Part shown: positions 2,822-54,581 of the stretch, piece after piece
How positions within the stretch are numbered: position 1 is the stretch's first letter
Layout: every line of letters starts with the position of its first letter
Notes under the pieces: model-generated
What the model was told of the DNA's origin: nothing
Databases searched by the model: none
What the model saw: the letters and a program-made list of their open reading frames with translations, nothing else
Program-made: the position numbers and the translations under genes
NCBI RefSeq assembly: GCF_001697225.1
Contig: NZ_CP014671.1
Location: forward strand, 124,001-188,000
DNA from: Immundisolibacter cernigliae
GTDB taxonomy: Bacteria > Pseudomonadota > Gammaproteobacteria > Immundisolibacterales > Immundisolibacteraceae
Direction: 5' to 3'
DNA: 64,000 nt

Positions 2822-3796
2822 TCAGACCACCCCCAGCTCCTTCAGCCGCCCGCGGATCCACTCGCGCTTCTCGGGCGCCACCTGGCGGATCGGCGAGCGC
2901 ATGACGCCGCCGGCCATGCCCAGCGCCTCGTAGCAGACCTTCAGGTTGCCCAGCGTGGTGGCGTAGGTGAAGTTACCGGACAGCGGCGCGAACATGATCT
3001 CGTCGTAGAAGTCGCGCACCGGCTGCAGTTGCTGCGAGACGGCAAACGCCTCTTCCCACTTGCCGGCCCGCGCCAGTGCCGTGTACTGCTCCAGCAGGCC
3101 GCGCTTTTTGCCATACAGGATGTGGGCAAAAGCGCCGTAGATGACCTGGCCGCCCTGACGCAGGTCGTTCAGCCAGTGGTGCTCGAACGGGTCGCTGACG
3201 ATGAAATCCTCGCCCGTCATGCGCCGCAGCTTGAGCGAATCATCGTGGTTCAGGCTGCCCTGCTTCATGCCCACGTAGGTCGGGATCTCCGACAGGCGCC
3301 GGGAAAGATCCAGGCTGATCAGGTGCCCGGCCACCATGGAGCGGTAGAACAGCAGCGCCAGATTGGAGTGGTCGGCCAGGTACTTGAAGTAGTCGTAGAT
3401 TTCCTGGTCCGAGCGCAGTTGCACGATGGGCGTGATGACTTCCGCCGCCACGAAGCCGAGCTTCTCGCAGAAGTTGAGCTTCTCCATCGCCTGATGGACG
3501 CTCTGGTCGAAGATGATGGTGTGCAGCGGGATGCGACCGGCAGCCGTCTCGGCGATCACCTCGTGGTAGCGCATCCACTCGGTGACCGACATGTTCCAGC
3601 ACTCGGCCACGAAGCCGCCCAGCACCAGCCCGCTCTCGCCGATGTCGATGAAGTGTTCGACGTTGCGGCGCAGGCCCTCCTCGTCGAGGCTGTCGTCGGG
3701 CAGGAACGGCGTGCACGGGCAGTCGTACCAGTCGCGTAGGGTCTGCTTGGCCCAGGTCTTGGCTTCGGATTTGGTGAAGGGCAGTTTGTTGGCCAT
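2822..3796 (-). CDS. DapA-family class I aldolase/lyase
   Basis: The 324-residue protein is a dihydrodipicolinate synthase-family TIM barrel. The Schiff-base lysine lies in VGMKQGS and the family tyrosine in LLFYRS. The N-terminal PCTPFLPDDSLDEEGLRRNV is the typical DapA opening. True lysine biosynthesis is unlikely given the catabolic surroundings and divergence (GGFVAECW where DapA has GTTGE). It probably cleaves or hydrates a 2-oxo acid in an aromatic or terpenoid pathway. It is distinct from the NahE-like relative at 20408. A good ribosome site (GAGGAG) precedes the ATG. Confidence 0.85.
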   Translation of the reverse strand: MANKLPFTKSEAKTWAKQTLRDWYDCPCTPFLPDDSLDEEGLRRNVEHFIDIGESGLVLGGFVAECWNMSVTEWMRYHEVIAETAAGRIPLHTIIFDQSVHQAMEKLNFCEKLGFVAAEVITPIVQLRSDQEIYDYFKYLADHSNLALLFYRSMVAGHLISLDLSRRLSEIPTYVGMKQGSLNHDDSLKLRRMTGEDFIVSDPFEHHWLNDLRQGGQVIYGAFAHILYGKKRGLLEQYTALARAGKWEEAFAVSQQLQPVRDFYDEIMFAPLSGNFTYATTLGNLKVCYEALGMAGGVMRSPIRQVAPEKREWIRGRLKELGVV

Positions 3797-14996: not shown

Positions 14997-16586
14997 TTAT
15001 CCCGCTTCTCTGCCCCAGGGCAGGGTGTCCGGATGCTGGCGAAACCCTTCGCGTAGCTGATGCTTGGCGATCTTGTGGGTGCCGCCCTTGGGCAGGTCGG
15101 GCACGATCTGCACGTATTTGGGCACTTCCCACTTGCCGACCTTGCCGCGGCAAAAGTCGATGAGCTCCTGCGGCGTCGCGGTGGCGCCGTCCCGCAGCGA
15201 AACCACGGCCACCACCGCCTCGCCCCATTCGGGGTGCGGAGCGCCCACGACGGCGCATTCGCGGATGGCGGCGTGCTCCGCCAGCACGTTTTCGACCACC
15301 ACCGGGAACACGTTGAAGGCGCCGGAGATGATCATGAATTTCTTGCGGTCGGTGAGGTAGTAATAGCCGCGTTCGTCCATCTTGCCCAGATCGTTGCAGC
15401 GCAGCCAGGCGCCGTGCTCGTCGTGACCGAACAGCTCCGCGTTTTCCTCCGGGCGGTTCAGATATCCGGCGATGTTGGTGTCGGTGAGTGCCCACAGTTC
15501 GCCCACTTCGCCGGTCGGCAGCGCCCTGCCGTCGGCGTCGCGAATCGACAAATCGACATGCAGCGCCGGCTTGCCGCAGGAGGTCAGCAACTGCGGCTCA
15601 CCGGCGAAGGCCCGCAGGTGATCCTCGTGCCGCAGGAACGACAGCCAGCCGCCGGTGGATTCGGTCAGGCCATAGATCTGCATGATTTCGCCGCCGAAGG
15701 TGGCGTGCCAGTCGCGGATCACCGGCGGGCGGGTCGGTTCGGAGCCGTAGACGATCTGGCGCAGCGAGGAGGCGTCGTAGTGGCCGGCCTTGTACAGCTC
15801 CAGCACGCGCTGCAGCAGGGTCGGCATCAGGATGGACGTGGTGGCGCGCTCGGCCTGCAGCAGCTCCAGCCAGCCGACGGCGGAAAAATCGCCACCCGGC
15901 AACACCATGCGCATGCCGTTCACGAGGCCAAACGAGTTCAGCACGATGCCGACACCGGCCGTCGAGCCCGGCGACAGGAACACGTCCTCGTGGCGCAGGC
16001 CGATCTGCAGGTTGGTGTGCAGCAGGCATTCGCGCACGCTGCGCTGCGTCCACAGCGCGCCCTTGGGCAGGCCGGTGGTGCCGGACGTGTAGCTGATGCC
16101 GATGATGTCGTCGTCGGTGAGTGCCGGCAGTGTCGGCCGTGCGTTGTGGCCGGCAAGCAGCTTCTCGTAGTCGATTTCCAGGCCGTGTCCGCCGCGCAGG
16201 CCCACCAGGCGCACGCCGGCAGCGCGGATGGTGTCCAGGTGCTCGCCCAGCAGCGGCAGGCAGTTGTCCTGCACGATCAGCACCTTGGCCGCGCAGTCGT
16301 GGATCAGGTGCAGCATCTCGCGCGGCGCGTAGCGCCAGTTCACGCCCACCCGCACGGCGCCGATCTTGATGCAGGCGAACCAGTGCTCCAGCACCTCGAC
16401 GTGGTCGTGGGCGAGGATCGCAACCACATCGCCCTTGCCTACGCCCATGGCCTGCAGCGCCGAGGCGAGGCGGTCCGAGCGCTCGTGCATCTGGCCCCAG
16501 GTGCGGCGCAGCGCGCCGTCGACGAAGGCGACCTTGTCCGGGTAGCTGGTGGCGCAGCGGCGCACGAAATCGCGCGGCAGGATCAT
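14997..16586 (-). CDS. Acyl-CoA ligase (AMP-dependent synthetase), block A
   Basis: A complete 529-residue ANL-superfamily enzyme that activates a carboxylic acid with ATP and CoA. The P-loop is SYTSGTTGLPKGALW, A5 is YGLTESTGGW, A8 is YLTDRKKFMIISGAFNVFP and the C-terminal catalytic lysine lies in GGTHKIAKHQ. The order of motifs and length are those of medium/long-chain or aromatic acid ligases. A close paralogue sits in block B at 49269. It is last in a minus-strand operon with the hydrolase and oxygenase genes upstream. Confidence 0.92.
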   Translation of the reverse strand: MILPRDFVRRCATSYPDKVAFVDGALRRTWGQMHERSDRLASALQAMGVGKGDVVAILAHDHVEVLEHWFACIKIGAVRVGVNWRYAPREMLHLIHDCAAKVLIVQDNCLPLLGEHLDTIRAAGVRLVGLRGGHGLEIDYEKLLAGHNARPTLPALTDDDIIGISYTSGTTGLPKGALWTQRSVRECLLHTNLQIGLRHEDVFLSPGSTAGVGIVLNSFGLVNGMRMVLPGGDFSAVGWLELLQAERATTSILMPTLLQRVLELYKAGHYDASSLRQIVYGSEPTRPPVIRDWHATFGGEIMQIYGLTESTGGWLSFLRHEDHLRAFAGEPQLLTSCGKPALHVDLSIRDADGRALPTGEVGELWALTDTNIAGYLNRPEENAELFGHDEHGAWLRCNDLGKMDERGYYYLTDRKKFMIISGAFNVFPVVVENVLAEHAAIRECAVVGAPHPEWGEAVVAVVSLRDGATATPQELIDFCRGKVGKWEVPKYVQIVPDLPKGGTHKIAKHQLREGFRQHPDTLPWGREAG

Positions 16587-16651
16587 GGCGGACTCCTCGT
16601 GATGGTCGTAGGTCGTGCGGGTGACCGACCGGGTTTTGATTTATCCAGCGT

Positions 16652-17485
16652 CTACAGGCCCGACAGGAAACCGAGCACGGCCTCGGTGAACACGTCGTTG
16701 CTGTCGCCGGCCACCATGTGGCCGGCGCCGGGCACTTCCACAAACTGTGCATGGGGCACGGTGGCCAGGAATTCGCGGGCGCCTTCGGGGCTGACAACAT
16801 CGCTGATCTGGCCGCGGATCAGCAAGGTCGGCACCGTCAACGCGCGGGCGCTCGCTTCCAGACGTTCCCGCACCGACGCACCCTTGGCGAAGGACTGCAT
16901 CATCCGCGTGTCCCAGTGCCAGTAGTAGCGGCCGTCGCGCAAGCGAAGGTTGCGCTCCAGGCCGGACACGTCGTCGGGTCGCGGACGGTGCGGCAGGTAG
17001 CTGGCGACGGCATCCGCCGCTTCGTCGAGCGAGGCAAAGCCGCGCGGATTGCCGGCCATGAAGTTGCGAACCTGTCCCTCGCCGCGCCGTTCGATGCGCG
17101 GCACGATATCCACCAGCACCAGCGCGCGCAGGAATTCGCCCTGCCGCTCGCCCTCGCTGAGCAGTCCGACCAATCCGCCCAGCGACGCGCCGACCAGCAC
17201 CGGCGGACGCGCCAGCGTGGCGACCACGCCACGAAAGTCCTGCACGTAGTCGTCGAAGCTGTAGTGACCGTCGTGTGCCCAGTCACTCTGGCCGTGACCA
17301 CGCTGGTCTACCGCCAACACGTACCAGCCGCGCTGCGCCAGCACGCGGGCCGTGCCCTGCCATGAGTGGCGGGTCTGGCCGCCACCGTGCAGCAGAATCA
17401 CCGGCGGGTTGGCCGGGTCGCCCCAGGTCTCGGCGGCCAGCGTGACTCCGCCGGCGGCGGCAAAACTGAGCAGTTGTGCCGTCAT
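16652..17485 (-). CDS. Alpha/beta-fold hydrolase
   Basis: The 277-residue protein is a classical alpha/beta hydrolase. The oxyanion loop is ILLHGGGQTRHSW, the nucleophile elbow is VGASLGGLVG with Ser near residue 104, and the histidine is in GAGHMVAGD near the C-terminus. An acid is expected at TLLIRGQISDVVSPE. It could be a C-C bond hydrolase, an esterase or an epoxide-hydrolase relative; C-C cleavage after ring opening would fit the operon. It lies between the oxygenase beta subunit and the CoA ligase. Confidence 0.9.
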   Translation of the reverse strand: MTAQLLSFAAAGGVTLAAETWGDPANPPVILLHGGGQTRHSWQGTARVLAQRGWYVLAVDQRGHGQSDWAHDGHYSFDDYVQDFRGVVATLARPPVLVGASLGGLVGLLSEGERQGEFLRALVLVDIVPRIERRGEGQVRNFMAGNPRGFASLDEAADAVASYLPHRPRPDDVSGLERNLRLRDGRYYWHWDTRMMQSFAKGASVRERLEASARALTVPTLLIRGQISDVVSPEGAREFLATVPHAQFVEVPGAGHMVAGDSNDVFTEAVLGFLSGL

Positions 17486-17510
17486 GGCTGCGTTCTGGCT
17501 GGCGTCACGA

Positions 17511-17996
17511 TCAGATCAGGAACGAAATGTTCGGGATCGGCTCGTCGCCATCGACCAGCACCACTTTCTTGGCCGCCATCAGCCAGCCGTCCCCGGCTTG
17601 GCGCAGGCGATGGGTGATGCGTCCGCCCCAGACGTGTACGTCCCGCGTCGACTGGATGGCCAGTTCCAGCAGGATGAAGTTCGAGCCGACGACGTAGTCG
17701 TTGCCGTCGATGGCCTCCACCACAATGCCCGACACGACCCGGCGCATGGGTGAAGGCGGCGTCTGACTGTGCCGGGTGCCGGTGAGCAACTGTGCGATCC
17801 GGGTATGAATGCGGCGTCGGTTGTCGTTGATGTGCGACACCTGCTTTTCCGGATCCAGGCCGTCGGAACGCGGCACCCAGTAATGGCCATCCTCGGTCCA
17901 CAGGGCCTCCCATTCGGCGTAACGGGACTCGTCACACAGGCGTGCTTCGTGATGAATGAAGTCGCTGATCTGCCTCAGCAGCGGGTCTGAAACCAT
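17511..17996 (-). CDS. Ring-hydroxylating oxygenase beta subunit, block A
   Basis: This 161-residue protein is a small (beta) subunit of an aromatic-ring-hydroxylating dioxygenase, a SnoaL/NTF2-like fold. Marks include FIHHEARLCDESRYAEWEAL, DGHYWVPR and the C-terminal KKVVLVDGDEPIPNISFLI. Beta subunits structure the alpha3beta3 hexamer. It is a clear paralogue of the beta subunit at 52647 (shared DESRYA-WEALWT-DG-YWVPR and HLRLRQ-like C-terminal pattern). It lies 73 bases downstream of its alpha partner. Confidence 0.93.
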   Translation of the reverse strand: MVSDPLLRQISDFIHHEARLCDESRYAEWEALWTEDGHYWVPRSDGLDPEKQVSHINDNRRRIHTRIAQLLTGTRHSQTPPSPMRRVVSGIVVEAIDGNDYVVGSNFILLELAIQSTRDVHVWGGRITHRLRQAGDGWLMAAKKVVLVDGDEPIPNISFLI

Positions 17997-18069
17997 CGGT
18001 TCGATCCTGGATGACGCGGCAGCAAATGGCGGACCCCGGATGGGGCGTGTCGCCAGTGGGTGGTCCGGC

Positions 18070-19350
18070 TCAGGTCGCGGCGCGCAGATCGCGCTGCATG
18101 GCCGCCTTGTAACGCCGGTAAAAGGACCGGTTCACGGTCTCATCCGACATGTGCGAGACGGTCAGGCCGTCTTCCTGGTATTCCCGATGCAGACCCCGAC
18201 TGAGGTCCATCCATTCGGGCTGCTGCGCCGCCAGGCCGGCCTGATTGCGCTCGGCGATGACCACATCCTCCGGAATCAGGAACGAGCCCGGCCCCACGGC
18301 GCCCTCGGTCTGGTGGATGGCGCGCCGGTTCATTTCCGGCGCGCCCTTTAGCAGCATCGGCGTATACAGCTGCACGCACTCGCCGGGGCTTACCGGGTAG
18401 TAAAAGACGACATTCAGTTCGCCCAGAAAAAGATTCGGGAAGATGATGGCGTGCGGCGGGCCACCACAGAACATCTCGTGGGATTTTTCCTTTCCGTAGC
18501 GGGCCTCCATGGCCGTGACGTAGTCCGGCAATTTCGACGCCGGCACCCGGCCGAACCACTCGAACGGAATGCCGCGCTTGCGGTACGCGACGCCAAAGTC
18601 GATTTCCATGTGCCCGTTGCCCCAGTCCCGCACGACCGGCTCGCCGCCGCCCTGGATAAGGTCGATGGCCTGCGAGTCGGTGGCGGACATGAACGACGAG
18701 TGTGTGAAATCGACGTGATACCCGTCGCAATCGTTCTCCGGCAGCATCTTCCAGTTGGCCTTGAACCGGTGTTTCAGCCAGCCGGCGGTCAGTTGCAACT
18801 CGCCTTGCGGCGACAGGTCGGCGCAGCGGTCCAGCAAGTCGGTGGCGCGACCGAGGTGCTCGGCCAGCGTCATGCGCGAGTGGTTCAGGCTGGCGAACAC
18901 GAAGCCGCGATACACCTCCACCTGCGCCGCCGGCGCCATGCCGTGGGCGGACTTGTCGAAATCCGGGCCGTAGCCGTCGGCCTGCGGCGTGTCCAGCAGG
19001 CTGCCGTCCAGATCGAACACCCAGCCGTGGTACGGGCAGGCGAACACCTTTTCGTTGCCGGCGTCGCGTGCGCAGACCTTGTTGCCACGATGGGCACAGC
19101 GGTTGCGAACGACGTGCACGCGCCCGTCCTTGCCGCGCGACATGATGACCGGCTGCTGGCCGATCTGCCGGGTGACGTAGTCGCCGGGATTGGGAATCTC
19201 GCTGTCGTGGCCGACGAACACCCAGCCGTGGTGGAAGATCTTTTCCATCTCCTCGTCGAAGATGACCGGGTCCGTATACAGCGCGCTGTGTACCCGGTCT
19301 GGCTGGATGAGCAGGTCGTAATCGATCGGAACCGCCCGTTCGATGCGCAT
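18070..19350 (-). CDS. Rieske ring-hydroxylating oxygenase alpha subunit, block A
   Basis: The 426-residue catalytic subunit inserts oxygen into an aromatic ring or removes a substituent. The Rieske cluster ligands are C85, H87, C105 and H108 (CAHRG and CPYHGW). The mononuclear iron site is in ENDCDGYHVDFTHSSF. Start at 19350 is chosen because AGGAGG stands six bases upstream; the ATG at 19368 lies ahead of that site. A candidate operator (19370-19379) overlaps the leader. It is closely related to the alpha subunit at 53167, including the opening MRIER and LIQPDRVH-LYT. It needs an outside reductase. Confidence 0.94.
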   Translation of the reverse strand: MRIERAVPIDYDLLIQPDRVHSALYTDPVIFDEEMEKIFHHGWVFVGHDSEIPNPGDYVTRQIGQQPVIMSRGKDGRVHVVRNRCAHRGNKVCARDAGNEKVFACPYHGWVFDLDGSLLDTPQADGYGPDFDKSAHGMAPAAQVEVYRGFVFASLNHSRMTLAEHLGRATDLLDRCADLSPQGELQLTAGWLKHRFKANWKMLPENDCDGYHVDFTHSSFMSATDSQAIDLIQGGGEPVVRDWGNGHMEIDFGVAYRKRGIPFEWFGRVPASKLPDYVTAMEARYGKEKSHEMFCGGPPHAIIFPNLFLGELNVVFYYPVSPGECVQLYTPMLLKGAPEMNRRAIHQTEGAVGPGSFLIPEDVVIAERNQAGLAAQQPEWMDLSRGLHREYQEDGLTVSHMSDETVNRSFYRRYKAAMQRDLRAAT

Positions 19351-19369
19351 CGGCAACCTCCTATTCATG

Positions 19370-19470: not shown

Positions 19471-20310
19471 CTACAGTCGGCTGGACAGCACCTGCCAGGC
19501 CTCCAGAAACGCGGCGAGGTGCGCGCGGCCCTGGGCGATCTGCGCCTGTAGCAGATCGCGCACGCGCTGTTGCTCCTGCGCATAGGCGCGGTCGTCGAAG
19601 TGGCCGCCCAGATGCGCCAGGCGCAGCCACACCAGATACGTGGTCAGCGCATCGCACTCGTTGTAGGCGACGATGCGATCGAGCTGGCCGTCCAGCCACA
19701 GGCTGGCCACGGCGTTGCCGTCCACGTCCAACTTGCCGGGAATGCCGGACAGCGTGGCCAGTTCGTGCAGCGATGGTGTGGCCTTGCCCCAGCCGCCCAG
19801 GATGTCCTTGATGTCGACATGCGCATCGCCGCGGGCAAAGTAGTCCACGCCCTCCCAAGGCTTGTCCGGGCGGTGGCAAAAATCCGCTGCCGACAGGCCG
19901 TTGACCACCGCCCGCTGCAGCAGGATCTTCATGTCGGCGGCTATCGAGTTGAAACCGACCAGCTGCGGCTTGTGCTCGCCGACGGCGTCCAGGAAAGTGC
20001 CGATCACGTGCCCTTCCGCCGCCTGTGCGGCATCACTCACGTCCTTTGGCAACGACAGCAGATGCAGTTGCACACTGCCGTCGCGCCGACGCTGGCGCGT
20101 CACGGCGGCAATCGACACCACCCGGCAGACGATGGTCTTCAGGAACGGCATCGGGTCCTCGTCGCTGGCGCCGGCCTGCTGCCACATGTGTTCCATCACC
20201 TCGCGGTCCGGCATGGCGGCCGGCAGCTTGTACAGCGCCCGCCCGGCGGCCGGATCGGGCACCCATTCGCAGTCGAAGGCCCAGACCCTGTCGAATACGC
20301 TCTTGAACAT
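19471..20310 (-). CDS. PolB-like 3'-5' exonuclease
   Basis: The 279-residue protein is a stand-alone DEDD-type exonuclease of the predicted 3'-5' exonuclease (PolB-like) family. Exo I is VWAFDCEWVPD near residue 10, Exo II is LVGFNSIAADMKIL near residue 117, and Exo III is YNECDALTTYLVW near residue 220, all with the expected acids. It would trim DNA or RNA 3' ends; its cellular role is unclear. It is transcribed away from the NahE-like gene. Confidence 0.88.
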   Translation of the reverse strand: MFKSVFDRVWAFDCEWVPDPAAGRALYKLPAAMPDREVMEHMWQQAGASDEDPMPFLKTIVCRVVSIAAVTRQRRRDGSVQLHLLSLPKDVSDAAQAAEGHVIGTFLDAVGEHKPQLVGFNSIAADMKILLQRAVVNGLSAADFCHRPDKPWEGVDYFARGDAHVDIKDILGGWGKATPSLHELATLSGIPGKLDVDGNAVASLWLDGQLDRIVAYNECDALTTYLVWLRLAHLGGHFDDRAYAQEQQRVRDLLQAQIAQGRAHLAAFLEAWQVLSSRL

Positions 20311-20407
20311 CGCTTTTTTCCATTGAAAGGCCCGCCTGACTGGTCGGTCGGTGGGCTGGGGCTATAAGCTACGGGGTCAACTGTCACCCATTTTCGAGGA
20401 GCCTGCC

Positions 20408-21403
20408 ATGCCAAGACGCGACCGCCTGACCGTGAACGACGTTCACGGCGCCTGGGCCATCATCCCCACCCCGGCCGTGGACAACGCCGAGGACTGGCGC
20501 TGCGAGGACAGCATCGACTATGACGAGGTTGCCAAGGCCGTCGACGGCCTGATCGTGGGCGGCGTCGACGCCATCATGGCCCAGGGCACCTTCGGCGAAG
20601 GCGCCACCATCACCTGGGAAGAAAAGAAAAAGATGATGTCGGTGATGGTCGAGACCGCCCGCGGCCGCAAGCCCATCTTCGTCGGCGTGACCACGCTGAA
20701 CACCCGCGACACCATCAAGCAGCTGAAGCACGCGCGCGACATCGGCGCCGACGGCACCATGCTCGGCCTGCCCATGTGGCAGGTGTGCGACGTGCCCAAC
20801 GCGGTGCGCTTCTACCGCGACGTGGCCGAGGCGGTGCCGGAAATGGCGATCTGCGTGTACGCCAACCCGGAGGCGTTCAAGTTCCAGTTCCCGACCCCGT
20901 TCTGGGCCGGCGTGGCGGAAATTCCGCAGGTCATAACCTGTAAGTACATCCACATTGGCCAGCTGTCCATACACACGGCGGTGACCAAAAAGCGCATCCG
21001 TTTCCTGCCGATCGAGTTCGATCACCTGGACGCCGCGCGCATCGATCCGGAGTTCCACACCGCCTTCTGGTCGCCCTGCGCCAACGGTGGACCGGAGATG
21101 ACCATCCGCATCCGCGACACCGTAAAGGAAGCCGTCAAGACCGGCGACTGGAGCACCGCGCTGCGCGTATGGGGCGCCGCTGCGCCAGTCATGGGCCATC
21201 TGATGCCGCCGGGTGGTTTCCCGGAGTTCTCGCGCTACAACATCCAGCTCGACAAGGCGCGCATCAACGCCAGCGGCTGGATGAAGGCCGGCCCCTGCCG
21301 TCCGCCGTACCTGACCGCCCCGGCCAACTACCTTGAAGGCGCCGTCAAGGCCGGCAAGGGCTGGGCCGAGCTGTGCGCCAAGGTGCGCGCCGGCGAGCTG
21401 TAA
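20408..21403 (+). CDS. NahE-like hydratase-aldolase
   Basis: The 331-residue protein closely follows trans-o-hydroxybenzylidenepyruvate hydratase-aldolase (NahE/PhdG), the DapA-family enzyme that releases pyruvate and an aromatic aldehyde in naphthalene and phenanthrene upper pathways. Shared stretches include GTFGEGATITWEEK, DIGADGTMLGLPMW, VYANPEAFKFQFP (Tyr151), QVITCKYIHIG (Schiff-base Lys179) and GWMKAGPCRPPY. Start at 20408 follows GAGGAG; the ATG-less upstream extension is rejected. The substrate could be a different polycyclic. It is the strongest single marker of PAH degradation in the window. Confidence 0.9.
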   Translation: MPRRDRLTVNDVHGAWAIIPTPAVDNAEDWRCEDSIDYDEVAKAVDGLIVGGVDAIMAQGTFGEGATITWEEKKKMMSVMVETARGRKPIFVGVTTLNTRDTIKQLKHARDIGADGTMLGLPMWQVCDVPNAVRFYRDVAEAVPEMAICVYANPEAFKFQFPTPFWAGVAEIPQVITCKYIHIGQLSIHTAVTKKRIRFLPIEFDHLDAARIDPEFHTAFWSPCANGGPEMTIRIRDTVKEAVKTGDWSTALRVWGAAAPVMGHLMPPGGFPEFSRYNIQLDKARINASGWMKAGPCRPPYLTAPANYLEGAVKAGKGWAELCAKVRAGEL

Positions 21404-21491
21404 ACAACCCTGCATGCCATCGCCGGGGCAGCCCTGGCGATGGCAGCCGGACGCTCAAGTCAACCGATAAAACTCCCCGGAGGAGAACACC

Positions 21492-22331
21492 ATGGCCAAG
21501 CAGCCTACCGCCGCCGAAATCACCCGCCAGACCCTGCACATCATGTCGCAGGGTGCCTCGGCCCAGCAGCACGTGGTCAATGCCTACATGGCAAAGCGCA
21601 ACCGCGAGCGCGACATCAACTGGGTGGTCATCCAGGCCGCGCGCGAGTATGGCGCCACCAACATGTACGCCGACCGGGCGCGCCTGGCGCTGGGCACCGG
21701 CATCGGGGTGCGCGAGGCCGACCGCTTCGCCGGCATCATGAAGGAGGAACTGGACCACTACCGGGCCTACATGAACCTGCTGGACCTGACGCTGGGCAAG
21801 GGCAAGGAGCCGCCTGAAAGCGATTCCTTCCATTACCTGAACGTCGAGTTCACCGGCCAGGGTGCCGGCTTTCACGGCGCCTCGGGCGACATCGTGGCGC
21901 GCAAGTGGCCGGAGCATCACCGCTTCATCACGCTGTGGATGAAGATCTACAACACGCTGCCGAAGTGGACCTCGCGCCTGCTGATGACGCAGGGCGAAGG
22001 CGGCTCGGTCGGCTGGCACTGGTGCATGAGCAACCTGCCGGGCAACGACGAGTTCCTGCGCCTGGCCGCCAAGCTGGAAAAAACCGTGGTCGAGGACGAA
22101 ATCTTCCACGGCCCGGAAGAAATCAAGGAACTGGCGGCCAGCTTCGATCCGGCGCAGGCCCTGCCCTGGGACGAGACGGTCAATCTGGCCCGTGAGATGC
22201 GGTACCTGGACGTGCGCGAGCGCAACGAGCAGTTCATGTACCCGCTCGGCGAAGATGAACTGGAAGACATCCGCCGCGCCATTTTCGAAGACACGCTGGC
22301 GCCGAGCGACATTTACGCCGCTGTGGCGTAA
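21492..22331 (+). CDS. Diiron ferritin-like oxygenase, phenylacetyl-CoA epoxidase (PaaA/PaaC)-related
   Basis: A 279-residue all-helical protein with two carboxylate-iron motifs, E86-x2-H89 (KEELDHYR) and E203-x2-H206 (VEDEIFHGPEE). This is the pattern of ferritin-like diiron proteins of the phenylacetic-acid catabolic family. Unlike a complete paaABCDE operon it stands alone, 88 bases after the NahE-like gene and with AGGAGG before its ATG. An oxygenase acting on a ring intermediate is likely; reductase partners are not adjacent. It may also be a regulatory or structural member of the family. Confidence 0.78.
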   Translation: MAKQPTAAEITRQTLHIMSQGASAQQHVVNAYMAKRNRERDINWVVIQAAREYGATNMYADRARLALGTGIGVREADRFAGIMKEELDHYRAYMNLLDLTLGKGKEPPESDSFHYLNVEFTGQGAGFHGASGDIVARKWPEHHRFITLWMKIYNTLPKWTSRLLMTQGEGGSVGWHWCMSNLPGNDEFLRLAAKLEKTVVEDEIFHGPEEIKELAASFDPAQALPWDETVNLAREMRYLDVRERNEQFMYPLGEDELEDIRRAIFEDTLAPSDIYAAVA

Positions 22332-22343
22332 TAGAGTCAAAGT

Positions 22344-22371
22344 CGGGAAAGGGCCTCCCCGCTCTTTCCCA
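22344..22371 (+). terminator. Candidate terminator hairpin
   Basis: CGGGAAAG (22344-22351) pairs with CTTTCCC (22364-22370) just after the diiron gene. There is no clean T-run, so termination is uncertain, but position and stem fit. Confidence 0.45.
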
Positions 22372-22382
22372 ACCCGATACAC

Positions 22383-23438
22383 ATGCCAACTCTTAGGGTT
22401 CCATTTGGGCAAGTAGGAGATCGACTCTTTGAGCCACTACAAGTACCAAATGGGAAGACCTGTGGGTGTGTCTGTCCAGCATGCAAACGACCCTTAATCG
22501 CTCGACAGCGTGCACGGACCCCCCACTTTGCGCATGAACCCGGGCAAGATTGTGCCCATGCTCTCGAGACTGCTGTCCACCTAGCCGCCAAACAGCTAAT
22601 AGCCACCCGGAGAGAACTGCGGTTACCCGTCATACGATATTCGAACCCTTACAAGAAAGAGGCGAGCTTTGACACAATTTTTACCGAGCAGTTAGTAAAA
22701 CCAGAAACCGTCGCTCTCGAAGCTTGGCTGACAGATATTCGCCCCGATTTAATTGCAACCGTGGCAGGACAGCCGTACCTCGTGGAAATCGCTGTAACCC
22801 ACTTCGTGGATGAAGAAAAACTGGAAAAAATATATCACCATAAAATTCCCACTTTTGAAATTGACGCCGAACGTCTAAAGGGGTCATTCACGTTCGCATC
22901 TTTGTCCGACCTGCTTTTCTCTGGGGCCTATTCCGCCCGTTGGCTATACCACCCTGAATTAGAAAAGTTATCAGAGAATTCTCGCCAAGATCATTTAAAA
23001 GAGATCGCGGCTGAAGAGGAAAAAAGGCGCCAGCGAGAAGAAGAATTCGAAAAATACAAAAACATGCCATACAGGGAAAAGCTGGCTTTAAATCGCCGCC
23101 GGCTTGGACTGAATGATACCCAATTCAGAAAATTAACCAGCTCTGTTCCGTGGGAACGATCTTTCAGGGCGCCACGAGAAGTATGGCAATCGGCAGTTTT
23201 GGCATATATAACGCAAGCGGACGACTGTCCAGACCCATCTATGCCGTATTGGGTTGATACTGATGATTGCTTGGATTGGCTAAAAAAAGTATTCGAAATT
23301 CAGCCCCAAGTCCCGGACGGAGATCAAATCGCTGTTTTTAAGTATTTCAGACACTTAGAAAATTCGGGGATTTTGAAGCATGAGTCCGCCAAAGAATTCC
23401 TAGTAGTCCTACCGCCAGATCAGTGGGCGAAGATTTAG
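22383..23438 (+). CDS. CoiA-like nuclease protein
   Basis: The 351-residue protein has a CoiA-type layout. An N-terminal zinc-finger-like part has C-x2-C in CGCVCPACKR and then HFAHEPGQDC. A central PD-(D/E)xK-type nuclease region reads DIRPDLIATV, LVEIAVTHFVDEEK, with Asp, Glu and Lys in order. A charged helical tail is at about residues 195-225. CoiA proteins act in competence, and relatives occur in defence and mobile islands. The gene is clearly AT-richer than both neighbours, a sign of transfer. It ends 10 bases from the convergent ubiB stop. Confidence 0.75.
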   Translation: MPTLRVPFGQVGDRLFEPLQVPNGKTCGCVCPACKRPLIARQRARTPHFAHEPGQDCAHALETAVHLAAKQLIATRRELRLPVIRYSNPYKKEASFDTIFTEQLVKPETVALEAWLTDIRPDLIATVAGQPYLVEIAVTHFVDEEKLEKIYHHKIPTFEIDAERLKGSFTFASLSDLLFSGAYSARWLYHPELEKLSENSRQDHLKEIAAEEEKRRQREEEFEKYKNMPYREKLALNRRRLGLNDTQFRKLTSSVPWERSFRAPREVWQSAVLAYITQADDCPDPSMPYWVDTDDCLDWLKKVFEIQPQVPDGDQIAVFKYFRHLENSGILKHESAKEFLVVLPPDQWAKI

Positions 23439-23447
23439 TCAGTGCGA

Positions 23448-25058
23448 CTAACCCCGCCGCGGCCACAACAAGACGATCGTCAGCAGGCCGAGCGGCCACG
23501 CCAGGGCCGGTATTCCCAACCACACCGGCTGAGCGAAGCCGGCAAGCTGCCAGACCCAGCCCCCCGCGGCGGTCAGCCCCGCGCCGCCCAGCACCAGTTC
23601 GAGCCGTCCCGGCCAGCGCCTTCGCGGCGCCGGCGGCGACAGCTTGGGCCGCTGCGCCTGCTCAAGCGCGCCGTAAATGAGATTCGGCACCCGCGGCAGG
23701 GTTTCCGCCCACAGCGGCGCCTCCTCGCGCAGGGTGTTGCGCAGTGCCCGCCAGCCGATGCGCTCGGCCATCCAGCGCTCCAGAAACGGCTTGGCGGTGC
23801 GCCAAAGATCAAGCTCCGGATAAAGACGCCGGCCCAAGCCCTCGATATTGAGCAAGGTTTTCTGCAAGAGCACCAGCTGCGGCTGCACCTGCATGTCGAA
23901 ACGCCGTGCCACCTGGAACAGCCGCAGCAGCAGCACGCCGAAGGAAATGTCCTTCAGTGGCTTGTCGAAGATCGGCTCGCACACGGCGCGAATGGCGCCC
24001 TCGAACTGATCGACCCGCAGGTCGGCCGGCACCCAGCCGGCGCGCAGGTGGGCCTTGGCCACGGTGGCGTAGTCGCGGTTGAAGAAGGCCACGAAGTTCT
24101 CGGCCAGGTAGCGTTGGTCTTCCGGGCGCAGGCTGCCGACGATGCCGAAATCGACCGCAATGTATTGCTCGTTCGGGCCGACGAAGATGTTGCCGGCGTG
24201 CATGTCGGCATGAAAGAAATTGTGCTCGAACACCTGCCGGAAAAAGATCTCCACGCCGCGCTCGGCCAGGCGCTGGAAGTCCACGCCGGCGGCGTGCATG
24301 GCGACGATGTTGTCGATGCCGATGCCGCGGATGCGCTCCATCATCATCACGTTCGGGCGCACGTAGTCCCAGTACACCTCCGGCACGTACAGGTCGGGCG
24401 AGTCCAGCCAGTGGCGGCGCAGCTGGCTGGCGTTGCCGGCTTCGCGCATCAGGTCGAGTTCGTCGAGCAGCGTCAACTCGAACTCGCGCACCACTTCCAC
24501 CGGGCGCAGGCGGCGCGTCTCGCGCACCACCCGGTGCGCGAACCGGGCCAGCATGTACAGCAGGCGGATATCGCGCCGGATGCGTGGTGCGATGCCCGGC
24601 CGCACCACCTTGATGACGATTTCGCGCCCGTCCGGCAGGCGCCCGGCATGCACCTGGGCGATCGAGGCCGACGCCAGTGGCACGTCGTCGAATTCGGCCA
24701 GCACCGTGCTCAGCGGCTGGCCGTAAGCGGTTTCGATCAGCCGGCGCGCCTGATCGCCCGGAAACGGCGGTACCTGATCCTGCAGGCGCACCAGCTCGTC
24801 GGCAATGTCCGGCGGCAACAGGTCGCGCCGGGTGGACAGAATCTGCCCGAACTTGACGAAGATCGGCCCGAGCTTTTCAAGCGCCTCGCGCAGGCGCACG
24901 CCGCGTGGCGGGCGCGCACGCCAGCGCCAGGGCAGCAGGCGCAGCAGCAGGCGCCCGCCCGGCAGGCGCGGGTGACCCAGGATGATCTCGTCGCCGCCGG
25001 CGCGCGCCAGCACGAACAGCACCCACCACAGGCGCAGCAGGCCCGGCAGGCTGGTCAT
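23448..25058 (-). CDS. ubiB: Ubiquinone biosynthesis ABC1/UbiB atypical kinase
   Basis: The 536-residue protein is UbiB, an atypical kinase/ATPase needed for ubiquinone synthesis. It has the KxGQ motif (GPIFVKFGQILSTR), the alanine-rich nucleotide loop (ASASIAQVHAGRL), VVRPGIAPRIRRD, the catalytic-loop HADMHAGNIFV and the metal-binding VDFGIVGSL. Two hydrophobic helices close the C-terminus, anchoring it in the membrane. Length and order match E. coli UbiB (546). Its start overlaps the ubiJ stop by four bases. Confidence 0.96.
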   Translation of the reverse strand: MTSLPGLLRLWWVLFVLARAGGDEIILGHPRLPGGRLLLRLLPWRWRARPPRGVRLREALEKLGPIFVKFGQILSTRRDLLPPDIADELVRLQDQVPPFPGDQARRLIETAYGQPLSTVLAEFDDVPLASASIAQVHAGRLPDGREIVIKVVRPGIAPRIRRDIRLLYMLARFAHRVVRETRRLRPVEVVREFELTLLDELDLMREAGNASQLRRHWLDSPDLYVPEVYWDYVRPNVMMMERIRGIGIDNIVAMHAAGVDFQRLAERGVEIFFRQVFEHNFFHADMHAGNIFVGPNEQYIAVDFGIVGSLRPEDQRYLAENFVAFFNRDYATVAKAHLRAGWVPADLRVDQFEGAIRAVCEPIFDKPLKDISFGVLLLRLFQVARRFDMQVQPQLVLLQKTLLNIEGLGRRLYPELDLWRTAKPFLERWMAERIGWRALRNTLREEAPLWAETLPRVPNLIYGALEQAQRPKLSPPAPRRRWPGRLELVLGGAGLTAAGGWVWQLAGFAQPVWLGIPALAWPLGLLTIVLLWPRRG

Positions 25059-31653: not shown

Positions 31654-32967
31654 ATGCTGATGCGCAGCAACGAACCGGACTGGGACACGCTGGTCGACGA
31701 ACCCAGCGCACGCGTCAGCCGCAGCGTGTTCGTGGACGAGGCCATCCACGCGCTGGAGATCGAACGCATCTTCAACCGCTGCTGGCTGTTCCTGGGGCAC
31801 GAGTCGGAAATCCCAAACCCCGGCGACTACGTCACCCGCCGCATGGCGGACGACCATGTGATCGTCATGCGGGGCCCGGATGGCCGCGTGCGGGTGTTCC
31901 TGAATGCGTGCGCGCACCGCGGGGTGAAAGTCTGCCGTGCGGATTCCGGCCATGCCAAACAGCTCATCTGCCCCTACCACGGCTGGACCTACGACACCGC
32001 AGGGCAATTGCTGACCACGGGCTTCGACGACTTCTACGCCGGCAAACTCGACAAGGCCGGCAGTGGCCTGAAGCAGGTCGCGCAGGTCGACACGCACGGC
32101 GGGCTGATCTTCGCCACCTTCGACCCGCAGGCGGTGAGCCTGGCCGACTATCTGGGCGACGCGCGCTTCTATCTGGACACCTACTTCAACCGCACGCCCG
32201 GCGGCATGGTGGTGCTGAGCCCACCGCAGCGCTGGGTGGTACAGGCCAACTGGAAGATGGGCGCGCTCAACTTCGGCACCGACAACCAGCACCTGTACCC
32301 CACGCATCTGGGGCCGACGGCCATGGAGCTGGTCGGCGTGCCGACGGCAGCCGTGATGGCCGGGCTGGGTGCCAGCCACCAGCTCAGCCTGGCCGGCGGT
32401 CACGGCACGGTCAGCACAGTGGTGCCGGAACAGCACGTCGTGCCCTACTGCGGCCTGAATCCGGACCTGATCCCCCTGTACGAGAAAACGCTGAACCCGG
32501 CCCAACTGGACCTGCTGCGGCGCAACGTGGTCACCGTGGGCAATGTGTTCCCGCACCTGGCCTGGATTCAGCCGGCGCTGGACGTGGAGCGCAATGGCAA
32601 GGTCGTGGCCAGCGGCACGCTGCGCGTGTGGCAGCCGCTGGGGCCATACGCCATGGAACTGACCTCGTGGTACCTGGCCGAGCGTGAAGCCTCCGACGAA
32701 TGGAAGCAAAAGGTGCTCGAAGCGGGCGTGCGCGGCTTTGGCATGAGCGGCGTGTTCGAGGAAGACGACGTCGACGTGTGGTCCTCGGTCACGCAGGTGT
32801 GCCGCGGCCGGCAGGCGCGCGCCGGCCAGGCCAGCTTCGAAACTGCGCTCAATTTCGCGCCGGTGGATGATTTCACCGGTCCTGGCACGGCTTATTTCCC
32901 GATGCTGCCGGAGTGCGAGCAGTTCAACTTCATGAAGCACTGGAAAGGGTTGATGCGCACGCCCTGA
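31654..32967 (+). CDS. Rieske ring-hydroxylating oxygenase alpha subunit
   Basis: A 437-residue alpha subunit. Rieske ligands are C86, H88 (CAHRG), C106 and H109 (CPYHGW). The catalytic iron histidines lie in FGTDNQHLYPTHLG, with the bridging aspartate. It is more distant from the block A and B alpha subunits than they are from each other, so it likely has another substrate. Co-transcribed with the beta subunit 37 bases downstream and with the CocE hydrolase. ATG 31654 follows AGGGAGG. Confidence 0.93.
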   Translation: MLMRSNEPDWDTLVDEPSARVSRSVFVDEAIHALEIERIFNRCWLFLGHESEIPNPGDYVTRRMADDHVIVMRGPDGRVRVFLNACAHRGVKVCRADSGHAKQLICPYHGWTYDTAGQLLTTGFDDFYAGKLDKAGSGLKQVAQVDTHGGLIFATFDPQAVSLADYLGDARFYLDTYFNRTPGGMVVLSPPQRWVVQANWKMGALNFGTDNQHLYPTHLGPTAMELVGVPTAAVMAGLGASHQLSLAGGHGTVSTVVPEQHVVPYCGLNPDLIPLYEKTLNPAQLDLLRRNVVTVGNVFPHLAWIQPALDVERNGKVVASGTLRVWQPLGPYAMELTSWYLAEREASDEWKQKVLEAGVRGFGMSGVFEEDDVDVWSSVTQVCRGRQARAGQASFETALNFAPVDDFTGPGTAYFPMLPECEQFNFMKHWKGLMRTP

Positions 32968-47651: not shown

Positions 47652-47981
47652 TCAGAAATGCACCTCGAAGCGGCTGGGCTCGAAGCCGTCCGGCACGGTC
47701 GGCGAGTGCAGCAGCTCCACTGACGGCGACACTTCCACGAACACCAGCGCCAGGAGCATCAGGTTGGCCTCGGCCGGCGGAAGATCGTTGATCGGGAACT
47801 GATCCAGATGCGCGATCATCGGCTCGATGCGCGGCAGCAGCGCGTCGTACACGCGCTGGATTTCGGGCAGTGGCGTGCCGATGCGCTTGCTGTGCCGCCC
47901 GCGTTCGGTCGGCAGCGCCCAGTCGGCCAGCCAGGCCAGGTCCCGATAAGCCTCGGGCAGGGCAAAGCCGGTCTCGCTCAT
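47652..47981 (-). CDS. Small protein coupled to Rieske alpha, unknown family
   Basis: From ATG 47981 the product has 109 residues (opening MSETGFALPEAYRDLAWLAD). The ATG overlaps the stop of the Rieske alpha subunit as ATGA, which fixes the start over a longer one at 47996. It has no Cys, no signal, and is acidic with helices. No family is recognised. As this oxygenase lacks an adjacent beta subunit, the protein may be an accessory partner; inference only. Confidence 0.7.
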   Translation of the reverse strand: MSETGFALPEAYRDLAWLADWALPTERGRHSKRIGTPLPEIQRVYDALLPRIEPMIAHLDQFPINDLPPAEANLMLLALVFVEVSPSVELLHSPTVPDGFEPSRFEVHF

Positions 47982-49177
47982 GGCCGGTTCACCCATTCCT
48001 GCACCGTGTGCAGCTGATGGCGCACGGCAATTTCCATCTCACTGACCGGCAGGTGCTTGAGCACACCCGAACCCATCGCCTTCTGGGCGAATTCGAGCGT
48101 GCTCAGGTCCTCGTACAGGATGTCGCGCAGCAGCACCTTGGTATGTTCCTGGGCGAATTTCTGGCCCGCCGTTTCGGCGTCGAGCTGGTAGATGTTCATC
48201 TCCCAGGTCGACTCGTCCACCGACACCGGCCAGAAGTTGTAGGTGAAGTACCAGCCCGGCCCGACGTCGATGAAGAAGTTCGGGAACAACACGTTGATGT
48301 CGAACCACCAGTTGGCGGACTTGTCCGGATTCAGGCCCGGCAGGTCGACCATGTCGCCGGGCGCGAAGCTCATGCCGTATTTCCAGGCCAGGGTTTCCGA
48401 GGGCGTCGGCGTGTGGTTCGGGTTCACCCACACGGAACCGGAATGATGCGGGCCGTAAATGCGCGCAGAGCTGAGCAGGCCATAGGGGTTTTCCTGCCCG
48501 GCGCAGGCGTCGGGCACCGTGTGCCGGTGCACCATCATCACGTGGTAGGCCTCGTGGAAGGCGTCGATGAAGGTCTTCCAGTTCGCCTTCACCCGCGCGC
48601 TGTAGCGGGCGATGTGGTTGAAGCGGGCGAACGGATAGTCGTCCAGCTGCGTGGCCATGCCGCCCAGGAACTCGCGCAGGCCGACCTTGGGCTCCGGTTC
48701 CCAGTGCACGAAGATGAAGCCGTTCCAGGTGTCGGTGGCCACCGGCCGCAGGCCGTACTCGGCGCGATCCAGATTGGCAAAGTATTCCTCGCCCGGCAGG
48801 CCCTTGAGGCGCCCGTCCAGGTCAAACGTCCAGCCGTGGAAGTTGCAGATGAAGCCCTGCGCGTTGCCCTTGTCACAGATGGCGACCGCCATGCCGCGGT
48901 GCGTGCACACATTGTGGAAGCCACGCACTACGCCGTCCTTGCCGCGCACGAGTAGGACCGAGGTCTTGAGCACTTCGATCTGGCGCACCACGTAATCGCC
49001 CGCATTGGGCAGTTCTTCGGTGCGCGCGACTTCCAGCCAGGCGCGGCGGAAGATTTTTTCGCGCTCCTTCTCGAAGAATTCGGCCGAGATGTAGGGCTCG
49101 ACCGGCAGCGGCCCGGTGCCCATATCCGGCATCTGGGTGGTGATCTGGGTATGGAATTTCTCGTCCGGCTTGGTCAT
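47978..49177 (-). CDS. Rieske ring-hydroxylating oxygenase alpha subunit without beta partner
   Basis: 399 residues from ATG 49177, chosen for GGAGAGAG just upstream (the 49240 start adds 21 residues). Rieske ligands C91, H93 (CTHRG), C111, H114 (CNFHGWTF). The iron site is FIDAFHEAYHVMMVHRHT. It is the most distant of the five alpha subunits and lacks a beta neighbour; many single-component alpha3 oxygenases do the same. A 109-residue protein is coupled downstream. Substrate unknown. Confidence 0.92.
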   Translation of the reverse strand: MTKPDEKFHTQITTQMPDMGTGPLPVEPYISAEFFEKEREKIFRRAWLEVARTEELPNAGDYVVRQIEVLKTSVLLVRGKDGVVRGFHNVCTHRGMAVAICDKGNAQGFICNFHGWTFDLDGRLKGLPGEEYFANLDRAEYGLRPVATDTWNGFIFVHWEPEPKVGLREFLGGMATQLDDYPFARFNHIARYSARVKANWKTFIDAFHEAYHVMMVHRHTVPDACAGQENPYGLLSSARIYGPHHSGSVWVNPNHTPTPSETLAWKYGMSFAPGDMVDLPGLNPDKSANWWFDINVLFPNFFIDVGPGWYFTYNFWPVSVDESTWEMNIYQLDAETAGQKFAQEHTKVLLRDILYEDLSTLEFAQKAMGSGVLKHLPVSEMEIAVRHQLHTVQEWVNRP

Positions 49178-49268
49178 GACGTCTCTCTCCGGCATATGGT
49201 TGTGCGGACCGCAGCGCATGCGGCCGCCGCGCGACAGCAACGCGAATGGTAAGCGAATTAACGGCCGA

Positions 49269-53166: not shown

Positions 53167-54414
53167 TCAGCCGGCCATGACGTGCAGGTAGTGCTGCCAG
53201 AAACCGCGGTTCGAAGTCTCGTCGGTCATGTGCGAGGTACGCACGCCGCGCGCGTCGGTTTCTTCCCGCTCCAGGCCGCGACTCAGATCACACCACGGAT
53301 CACCGGCTTCGAGTGCCTGCTGCGCCCGCTCGGCAATCGACGCGTCGTCCGCCACCAGGAACGAGGCCGGCCCCAGCGCCCCCTCGCTTTGCCGCAGCAG
53401 CCGAAAATCCAGACTCGGCGCGCCTTCCAGCAGCATCGGCGTGTGCCACTGCACGCTCTTGTTCACGGCCAGCGGCTGGAAGATGACGATGTTCATCTCG
53501 GCCAGAAACAGGTTCGGCCAGATGCAGGCGTGCGGCGGACCCAGGCGCATCAGCTCTGCGGCCCGCTCCTTGCCGTAGGATTTTTCCATCGCGGCCACGT
53601 AGTCGGCGGCCTTTTCGGGGCTGGTACCCAGCCACTCCAGCGGCTTGGTGTAGCCGCCTGCAAAGTCGATCTCGGTGTGGCCGTTGCCCCAGTCGCGGAT
53701 GACGCCGTTGGCCGAGGTGTCGTCCGCCACGAACTGGTCGTACTGCGAGCGGATGGCCCGCACGAAGGACTGGTGCGTGAAACCGACGTGGTAACCGTCG
53801 GTGTCGTTCTCGGGCAGCATCTTCCAGTTGGCGCCGTACTCATGGCGCACCCAGCCGGCGGAAAGGCGCAGCCTGCCATCCGGCGACAGGTCGCAGGCGC
53901 GGTCGATCAGCGCCTTGGCCCGGCCAAGGTGTTCGTCGAGCGTGATGCCGTCCTGGGCCGCGCTGGCAAACACAAACCCGCGGTAGCTGCCGCTGCGCGG
54001 CACTTCCAGGCCCAGCTTGTTCCAGTCCTTCTGGAAGCCGCCGGCGTGCGGCACATCCTGCAGCTCGCCGTTCAGGCCGAAGGTCCAGCCGTGGTAGGGG
54101 CAGGTGAAATTCTTGGCGTTGCCGGCGGCGGTGTTGCACACCAGGTTGCCGCGGTGCTGGCAACGGTTGATGAACACGTTCACCGCGCCATCCTGACCGC
54201 GCACCACCAGATAGTGCTGGCGACCGACGGTGCGGGTGATGTAGTCGCCCGGGTTCGGCAGCTCGCTGTCGTGTGCCACGAACACCCAGCCGCGGGAAAA
54301 AATCTTGTCCAGCTCGTCCTCGAACACGTACGGCTCGGTGTACAGCGAGCCGTGGACGCGGTCCGGCTGGATCAGGTCCCGGTAACTGGCCGGGGAGAGA
54401 CGTTCGATACGCAT
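53167..54414 (-). CDS. Rieske ring-hydroxylating oxygenase alpha subunit, block B
   Basis: 415 residues from ATG 54414 (AGGAGC upstream). Rieske ligands C85, H87, C105, H108; iron site ENDTDGYHVGFTHQSF. Paralogue of block A alpha: same MRIER opening, LIQPDRVH and NPGDY-TR. The palindrome at 54582 shares its core with the block A operator. The longer start at 54519 (GTG) has no ribosome site and adds an arginine-rich stretch. Confidence 0.94.
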   Translation of the reverse strand: MRIERLSPASYRDLIQPDRVHGSLYTEPYVFEDELDKIFSRGWVFVAHDSELPNPGDYITRTVGRQHYLVVRGQDGAVNVFINRCQHRGNLVCNTAAGNAKNFTCPYHGWTFGLNGELQDVPHAGGFQKDWNKLGLEVPRSGSYRGFVFASAAQDGITLDEHLGRAKALIDRACDLSPDGRLRLSAGWVRHEYGANWKMLPENDTDGYHVGFTHQSFVRAIRSQYDQFVADDTSANGVIRDWGNGHTEIDFAGGYTKPLEWLGTSPEKAADYVAAMEKSYGKERAAELMRLGPPHACIWPNLFLAEMNIVIFQPLAVNKSVQWHTPMLLEGAPSLDFRLLRQSEGALGPASFLVADDASIAERAQQALEAGDPWCDLSRGLEREETDARGVRTSHMTDETSNRGFWQHYLHVMAG

Positions 54415-54581
54415 GCCCTTGCTCCTGCGTAATGCCGGCACCGGGCCGGCGGATCGGGCTGCCCTACGGCGGGGCGCCCTTGCCTGGTATGGAAAGCGCG
54501 CGCCGGGTGCCACCCGCACCGCCTAGCGCCCGTTCATGGGCTAGCGGACTCCCGCGCGCGTTGCCAGAGTCAGCCTGCATT

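What the first reader, a model, noticed from the sequence alone, without database searches (positions are those of the whole stretch)
20408..22331. NahE-like aldolase beside a lone diiron oxygenase-like protein
The aldolase matches naphthalene/phenanthrene enzymes, but the neighbour is a PaaA/PaaC-type diiron protein without PaaB/D/E. This pairing could be a new ring-processing step.
Basis: partly seen in the sequence, partly recalled or inferred. Interest (0 to 1): 0.55.

Follow-up and report, generated by a model that had tools for sequence, protein, structure and literature searches.

The report
Undescribed diiron protein beside Rieske oxygenases
Next to an ordinary naphthalene-type aldolase in a pollutant-degrading bacterium sits a protein that no family library we searched recognises, with the sequence signature of an oxygen-activating two-iron enzyme, and its relatives repeatedly sit next to ring-attacking oxygenases, so it is a good candidate for an untested step in breaking down aromatic pollutants.

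Summary
Both genes are real and at the stated coordinates. The aldolase (20408-21403 +) is an ordinary NahE-type hydratase-aldolase: 55% identical to solved NahE, four recalled active-site residues kept. The neighbour (21492-22331 +) is not a detectable PaaA/PaaC protein: no Pfam, NCBIfam or PDB match, no profile-profile similarity, no PF05138 in the genome. It carries a 2-His/4-carboxylate diiron signature (E52, E86xxH89, E169, E203xxH206), invariant in ten of ten family members down to 35% identity. All 7 sampled genomes of the host family (Immundisolibacteraceae, inferred) have it; about 1,150 overlapping genome draws outside gave one probable remote relative and two weak hits set aside. 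The aldolase-diiron pair is kept in 3 of 3 genomes of the genus, not beyond. The recurrent neighbour is a Rieske ring-hydroxylating oxygenase, touching the diiron gene in three of four arrangement types, from three separate places in the oxygenase tree. Best reading: a new family of ferritin-like diiron oxygenase/oxidase in Rieske-initiated aromatic catabolism, recruited beside the aldolase in one genus. Structure prediction failed (pLDDT 42); fold, iron and substrate are untested.

The parts
20408..21403 (+). NahE-type trans-o-hydroxybenzylidenepyruvate hydratase-aldolase (P0001)
   Evidence: DHDPS Pfam; best PDB hit NahE 6dao, 54.8% identity, NahE W128/Y155/N157/K183 kept as W124/Y151/N153/K179 (the residue roles are recalled)
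21492..22331 (+). Ferritin-like diiron oxygenase/oxidase candidate of an undescribed family (P0002)
   Evidence: No Pfam/NCBIfam match, no meaningful PDB match; E52, E86xxH89, E169, E203xxH206 invariant in 10 homologues
21404..21491 (+). 88-base gap between aldolase and diiron gene; no rightward terminator-like site found, so one transcript is likely (inferred)
   Evidence: two terminator-like hits in 20290-22420, both on the - strand (one of them, 21485-21473, inside this gap), against a mean of 1.6 in shuffles
19471..20310 (-). Divergent 3'-5' exonuclease-like gene (DNA_pol_B_exo2); constant neighbour of the aldolase, not thought to be part of the pathway
   Evidence: the same divergent arrangement in G150, G369, G370 and G371 (in G371 the gene is cut by the contig end)
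18070..19368 (-). Rieske ring-hydroxylating oxygenase alpha subunit nearest to the pair (exonuclease-like gene and aldolase lie between it and the diiron gene)
   Evidence: PF00355/PF00848; same starred four-row clade as the alpha subunit facing the G370 diiron orthologue (98/92)
17511..17996 (-). Ring-hydroxylating oxygenase beta subunit
   Evidence: PF00866
16652..17485 (-). Alpha/beta hydrolase of the oxygenase operon
   Evidence: 59-62% relatives beside the same oxygenase in G262, G370, G371, G372
14997..16586 (-). Acyl/aryl-CoA ligase of the oxygenase operon
   Evidence: PF00501; 69-71% relatives in G370, G371, G372

Best explanation
The 279-aa protein is the window's member of an undescribed family of ferritin-like diiron proteins with a 2-His/4-carboxylate site, most likely an O2-activating oxygenase or oxidase. 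It works in Rieske-initiated aromatic catabolism in Immundisolibacteraceae. The Rieske enzyme makes a cis-dihydrodiol, the ring is opened, and the hydratase-aldolase splits the side chain into pyruvate and an o-hydroxy-arylaldehyde; the diiron protein, probably on the aldolase's transcript, acts on a ring or side-chain intermediate at or next to that point, with electrons from a shared ferredoxin/reductase. Shown here: sequence family, invariant ligand pattern, purifying selection, gene neighbourhoods. Inferred: fold, iron, O2 chemistry, co-transcription, reductase, substrate.
For: E52, E86xxH89, E169, E203xxH206 invariant in 10 of 10 rows, with an E-to-ExxH spacing of 34 in both halves and an invariant carboxylate just before each ExxH (E85, D202). 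PMC12101540 (passages) says most nonheme diiron hydroxylases use 2 His/4 carboxylates and that D135 and D226 of AurF hydrogen-bond its histidine ligands. A Rieske alpha subunit is the immediate neighbour in three of four arrangement types: divergent in G000/G150/G369, directly downstream in G262/G371, divergent with a beta subunit in G370. These alpha subunits lie in three separate places of the alpha-subunit tree, so the pairing is not one block copied around. With 65 PF00848 matches in this genome and about 3,000 genes (my assumption), at most about 4% of genes can touch one; 3 or more of 4 by chance is then about 3e-4 (my arithmetic). Aldolase and diiron gene stay adjacent in 3 of 3 genomes of the genus. 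dN/dS about 0.12.
Against: The structure model failed (pLDDT 42, pTM 0.28), so the fold is unproven. In the window's own arrangement no Rieske gene touches the diiron gene: the nearest is two genes away, and in G150 none was found within the 18 kb read. The window's Rieske-hydrolase-CoA ligase operon occurs in four other genomes without either gene as far as their contigs reach. The adjacency estimate was made after the fact, and these genomes are crowded with Rieske genes (22-62 hits each). No dedicated reductase was seen beside the pair. The probable remote relative in G936 sits by a fumarate-reductase-like flavoprotein and a 2Fe-2S protein, with no Rieske gene recognised nearby.
Confidence: 0.5

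Rival explanations
1. The diiron protein is not an oxygenase but a support protein (ferroxidase, peroxide scavenger, or iron supply for the many Rieske/mononuclear-iron enzymes).
For: Ferritin-like 2-His/4-carboxylate sites also serve ferroxidases and rubrerythrins (general knowledge); the family accompanies Rieske enzymes from several parts of their tree, which suits a general helper; no reductase of its own was seen nearby.
Against: In this genome only one of its two copies touches a Rieske gene, one of 65; type 3 and 4 neighbours are catabolic enzymes (aldehyde and alcohol dehydrogenases, CoA ligase, thiamine enzyme).
Confidence: 0.2
2. It is a bystander: the diiron gene drifted next to the aldolase in the ancestor of one genus and the two have no shared pathway.
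For: The pair was not seen outside the genus; G371 has a hydrolase in that place and G370 carries the two genes on separate contigs.
Against: Kept in 3 of 3 genomes of the genus, same strand, short gap, both under purifying selection.
Confidence: 0.25
3. A lone PaaA/BoxB-like epoxidase acting on an aryl-CoA thioester made by the neighbouring CoA ligases.
For: CoA ligases near the gene in the window (14997-16586) and in G370 (L043 11377-12948); a similar E...ExxH...ExxH layout.
Against: No PF05138 match, no hhalign similarity to PaaA/PaaC; no PF05138 in the genome; no relative of the window CoA ligase at E <= 1e-8 in the type 2 and type 3 loci read. BoxB itself was not compared.
Confidence: 0.1
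4. The motif is coincidental and the protein has another fold or no metal.
For: No fold confirmed; the pattern alone occurs in 3.8% of shuffles.
Against: All six positions invariant down to 35% identity; 3 of 20,000 when invariant letters are reshuffled; DExxH and RNExF stretches recur in the remote G936 relative.
Confidence: 0.07

Closest known systems
NahE trans-o-hydroxybenzylidenepyruvate hydratase-aldolase (PDB 6dao, 8do5)
   Same: 54.8% identity over the aligned length, active-site W/Y/N/K kept (roles recalled)
   Different: Substrate ring size untested; two further copies, 44% and 42% identical, elsewhere in the genome
PaaA/PaaC, phenylacetyl-CoA epoxidase subunits (PF05138)
   Same: General layout with two ExxH motifs, each preceded by a carboxylate (PaaA alignment A4)
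   Different: No HMM or profile-profile similarity; no PF05138 in the genome
AurF N-oxygenase and CylC halogenase (ferritin-like diiron enzymes)
   Same: Invariant carboxylate before each ExxH, as AurF D135/D226 (passages of PMC12101540)
   Different: AurF uses 3 His/4 carboxylates; the position of the extra His (HxxDExxH) is V or I here; no AurF Pfam match
Haem-oxygenase-like dimetal oxidases (PF14518)
   Same: Neighbours of the family in type 3 loci
   Different: P0002 itself has no match to PF14518

Membership tests
NahE-type hydratase-aldolase | DHDPS/N-acetylneuraminate-lyase superfamily domain | tested here: met
   PF00701 E 8.9e-19
NahE-type hydratase-aldolase | Schiff-base Lys183 with W128, Y155, N157 (roles recalled) | tested here: met
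   K179, W124, Y151, N153 in the alignment to 6dao
NahE-type hydratase-aldolase | Retro-aldol cleavage to pyruvate and aryl aldehyde | not testable with these tools
   needs an enzyme assay
PaaA/PaaC (phenylacetyl-CoA epoxidase) | Match to PF05138 | tested here: not met
   no match listed at E up to 10 for the 5 rows of A1 and 2 further members
PaaA/PaaC (phenylacetyl-CoA epoxidase) | Profile-level similarity to PaaA or PaaC | tested here: not met
   hhalign probability 0.2% and 0.4%; shallow profiles (4 and 2 rows on the Paa side), so insensitive
PaaA/PaaC (phenylacetyl-CoA epoxidase) | PaaABCDE gene set | tested here: not met
   0 PF05138 matches (PaaA and PaaC) in the genome; PaaB, D, E not searched
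Ferritin-like diiron oxygenase/oxidase | Two ExxH and two further carboxylates, conserved | tested here: met
   invariant in 10 of 10
Ferritin-like diiron oxygenase/oxidase | Four-helix bundle bringing the ligands together | tested here: inconclusive
   AlphaFold2 pLDDT 42, only three rows, 92-95% identical
Ferritin-like diiron oxygenase/oxidase | Two bound Fe and O2 activation | not testable with these tools
   needs metal analysis and assays
AurF-type N-oxygenase | Third histidine ligand four residues before the glutamate of the last ExxH | tested here: not met
   position 199 is V or I in alignment A3
Haem-oxygenase-like dimetal oxidase | PF14518 match | tested here: not met

The most novel reading that the evidence does not exclude
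P0002 belongs to a previously undescribed class of single-component diiron oxygenases that pairs with Rieske dioxygenases from several parts of their tree. In Immundisolibacter it acts directly on the product of the hydratase-aldolase (an o-hydroxy-arylaldehyde), removing or oxidising the formyl carbon or hydroxylating the ring, and so replaces or extends the salicylaldehyde-dehydrogenase step of PAH breakdown.
Probability: 0.13. Interest if true: 0.78.

Novelty: new variant of a known kind. Interest (0 to 1): 0.48.

Why it matters
[quoted passage not shown] A protein family with no match in Pfam, NCBIfam or PDB sequences, with an intact diiron signature and repeated linkage to Rieske oxygenases, is a concrete and testable candidate for an unknown oxidation step. 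If it is only a helper, it would still show how organisms with dozens of Rieske oxygenases keep them supplied or protected.

Tried and rejected
PaaA/PaaC membership: rejected after Pfam, hhalign and a genome search. AurF-type N-oxygenase: the extra histidine is missing. Haem-oxygenase-like oxidase: no match. Weak profile hits in G412 and G432 (G412 again): the matched stretch of G412 was translated, has no ExxH, and was set aside as chance; G432 matches the same profile stretch and was set aside without translating its match. G936 246-aa protein kept as a probable remote relative: 24.4 bits against a best of 9.6 among 2,000 shuffles plus the reversed sequence; DExxH, EGGG and RNExF stretches are present, but only profile positions 187-256 align by HMM, the helix-1 ligand is ambiguous (E46 or E60) and MAFFT misplaces the first ExxH. 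Searches that found no relative: plasmids with three queries and viral contigs (38 pattern matches, none confirmed); the scan of genome contigs with the single sequence found only one Immundisolibacter MAG (16 pattern matches, 2 confirmed). PADLOC gave no match. Structure prediction with three near-identical rows was useless, so no fold search was run and the second job was not used. A random-placement estimate of Rieske adjacency gave 1.1% of placements within 300 bases and 5.2% within 1,500 bases of a padded Rieske gene; I judged it too crude and used the larger bound of about 4% per gene. The alpha-subunit tree had 72 rows: 77 ORFs found by the Rieske pattern, less 3 identical and 2 short ones; at least two rows are second readings of another row, and alpha subunits without the exact pattern are missing. 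A search of the order of G014 covered one genome only and shows nothing. Literature: searches; no listed title or abstract start was about this protein, but only open-licence PMC papers are held, lists were capped, and beyond listings I saw only the passages.

Full report
Setting. The window is bases 124001-188000 of a complete 3,243,537-base chromosome. The genome holds 65 matches to the ring-hydroxylating oxygenase alpha-subunit domain PF00848. A paper reports 21 xylX variants in I. cernigliae (PMC9535955, passages only).

The aldolase. The ORF 20408-21403 is a DHDPS-superfamily protein. Its best solved relatives are NahE (6dao, 393 bits) and a second hydratase-aldolase (9frt, 391 bits), well ahead of PhdJ (270 bits) (the name NahE for 6dao is recalled, the record says trans-o-hydroxybenzylidenepyruvate hydratase-aldolase). 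Identity to 6dao is 177 of 323 aligned positions, and its W128, Y155, N157, K183 are matched by W124, Y151, N153, K179 (the roles of these residues are recalled). The genome has two further such copies at 44% and 42% identity. This part is ordinary.

The neighbour. The ORF 21492-22331 (279 aa) has no match in Pfam or NCBIfam (Pfam again at E up to 10) and none worth notice in PDB sequences (best E 1.2, unrelated). Ten family members from seven genomes align with E52, E86xxH89, E169 and E203xxH206 invariant, and the residues before each ExxH (E85, D202) are also invariant. The spacing from the lone glutamate to ExxH is 34 in both halves. The pattern alone is not rare in shuffles of this protein (754 of 20,000), but when the letters of the 62 invariant columns are reshuffled among those columns it appears in 3 of 20,000. 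This is the 2-His/4-carboxylate set that PMC12101540 gives as usual for diiron hydroxylases (passages). It is not detectably PaaA/PaaC. AlphaFold2 with the three near-identical rows allowed gave pLDDT 42 and says nothing about fold.

Distribution. All 7 of 7 sampled genomes of family f1 have the protein; the one other genome of the order does not. Three of 369 genomes drawn from the class match, all in family f1. The phylum search (3 of 398 genomes) gave the own genome and two weak hits. A search of 385 genomes of the class of G412 gave 2: one of those weak hits again and one probable remote relative in G936. These samples overlap in part. Plasmids (three queries) and viral contigs gave none.

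Neighbourhoods, four arrangement types over ten genes (an eleventh match, G369:C208, is taken to be the rest of the gene cut at G369:C303). Type 1 (G000 window, G150, G369; 3 genes): exonuclease-like gene divergent from the aldolase, then the diiron gene. No Rieske gene was seen to touch the diiron gene: in G000 the nearest lies two genes away, in G150 none was found within the 18 kb read, and in G369 the contig ends inside the gene. Type 2 (G000 at 2157628, G150, G369; 3 of 3): diiron gene divergent from a Rieske alpha subunit, with a beta subunit identified in G369. Type 3 (G262, G371, G372): one or two haem-oxygenase-like genes, then the diiron gene, then a Rieske alpha subunit (2 of 3; in G372 the contig ends first), with aldehyde or alcohol dehydrogenase genes downstream. 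Type 4 (G370; 61% to P0002): divergent from a Rieske alpha subunit (Rieske domain matched, PF00848 not) and beta subunit, followed by a thiamine-diphosphate enzyme and a CoA ligase. Sources. In a tree of 72 alpha subunits the diiron-adjacent ones lie in three separate places, and the type 4 one lies in a well-supported four-row clade with the window's 18070-19368 subunit (98/92). Counted against the four window subunits, the label needs at least three changes and is not more clustered than in shuffles (246 of 500 as low), which fits several separate recruitments.

Is the pair conserved? Within the genus, yes (3 of 3). Outside, it was not seen. Aldolase orthologues in G370 (78%) and G371 (76%) keep the divergent exonuclease-like gene. 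In G371 the next gene is an alpha/beta hydrolase; in G370 the contig ends about 170 bases after the aldolase, and the diiron gene is on another contig. In G370 a Rieske alpha/beta pair again sits behind the exonuclease-like gene, but that alpha subunit is only 31% identical to the window's. The window's oxygenase alpha-beta-hydrolase-CoA ligase operon (14997-19368) occurs without either gene in G370 and G371 and, as far as short contigs reach, in G262 and G372.

Interpretation. The protein is most likely a ferritin-like diiron oxygenase or oxidase used in Rieske-initiated aromatic catabolism, recruited beside the aldolase in one genus. Sequence family, ligand conservation, selection and neighbourhoods are shown. 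Fold, metal, chemistry, electron donor and substrate are inferred. The adjacency argument is after the fact and rests on a rough gene count: at most about 130 of about 3,000 genes (my assumption) can touch one of 65 alpha subunits, so 3 or more of 4 types by chance is about 3e-4 (my arithmetic). The main rivals are a helper protein for iron enzymes and a simple bystander of the aldolase.

Verdict. The wider finding, an undescribed diiron family linked to Rieske oxygenases, is moderately interesting and directly testable.

Noticed in passing
whole genome; window 18070-19368, 31654-32967, 47978-49240, 53167-54519, 58907-60184: 65 PF00848 matches in a 3.24 Mb genome, four of them in the window; a fifth window ORF (31654-32967) carries the Rieske CxH...CxxH pattern. 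Six related genomes have 22-62 hits each to the window alpha subunit at E <= 1e-20.
   Followed up: partly
L044 5662-7208, L045 1076-2622, L021 28-744: One or two haem-oxygenase-like genes (PF14518 in the three proteins scanned; those in L045 by close likeness) sit directly upstream of the diiron gene in the sister genus, with Rieske alpha subunits downstream in L021 and L044: possibly two different diiron folds plus a Rieske enzyme in one operon.
   Followed up: partly
L044 2069-3397 -: Second Rieske-type alpha subunit of that operon (PF00355/PF00848) in which the first Rieske ligand motif CxH reads STH in the printed sequence, so its 2Fe-2S site may be altered.
   Followed up: no
window 22383-23438 +: CoiA-like gene (just over the Pfam cut-off) of low coding bias, absent between the diiron gene and the next shared gene (23448-25058) in G150 (L019); looks like a recent insertion.
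   Followed up: no
window 60844-61872 -: Reductase with Fer2-FAD-NAD order, a likely electron donor for Rieske oxygenases in the window; the Fer2 domain is N-terminal, unlike PaaE (recalled).
   Followed up: no
window 2822-3796 -: A second DHDPS-family protein in the window; not among the 10 matches to the NahE-like aldolase in this genome.
   Followed up: no
L169 7887-8627 + (G936): Probable remote family member divergent from a fumarate-reductase-like flavoprotein and a Fer2_3 protein; could point to an electron donor.
   Followed up: partly
genome 2771684-2772325 and 2231066-2231596: Two Rieske alpha-subunit matches contain an in-frame stop (TAG, TGA), so some of the 65 copies may be broken.
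   Followed up: no
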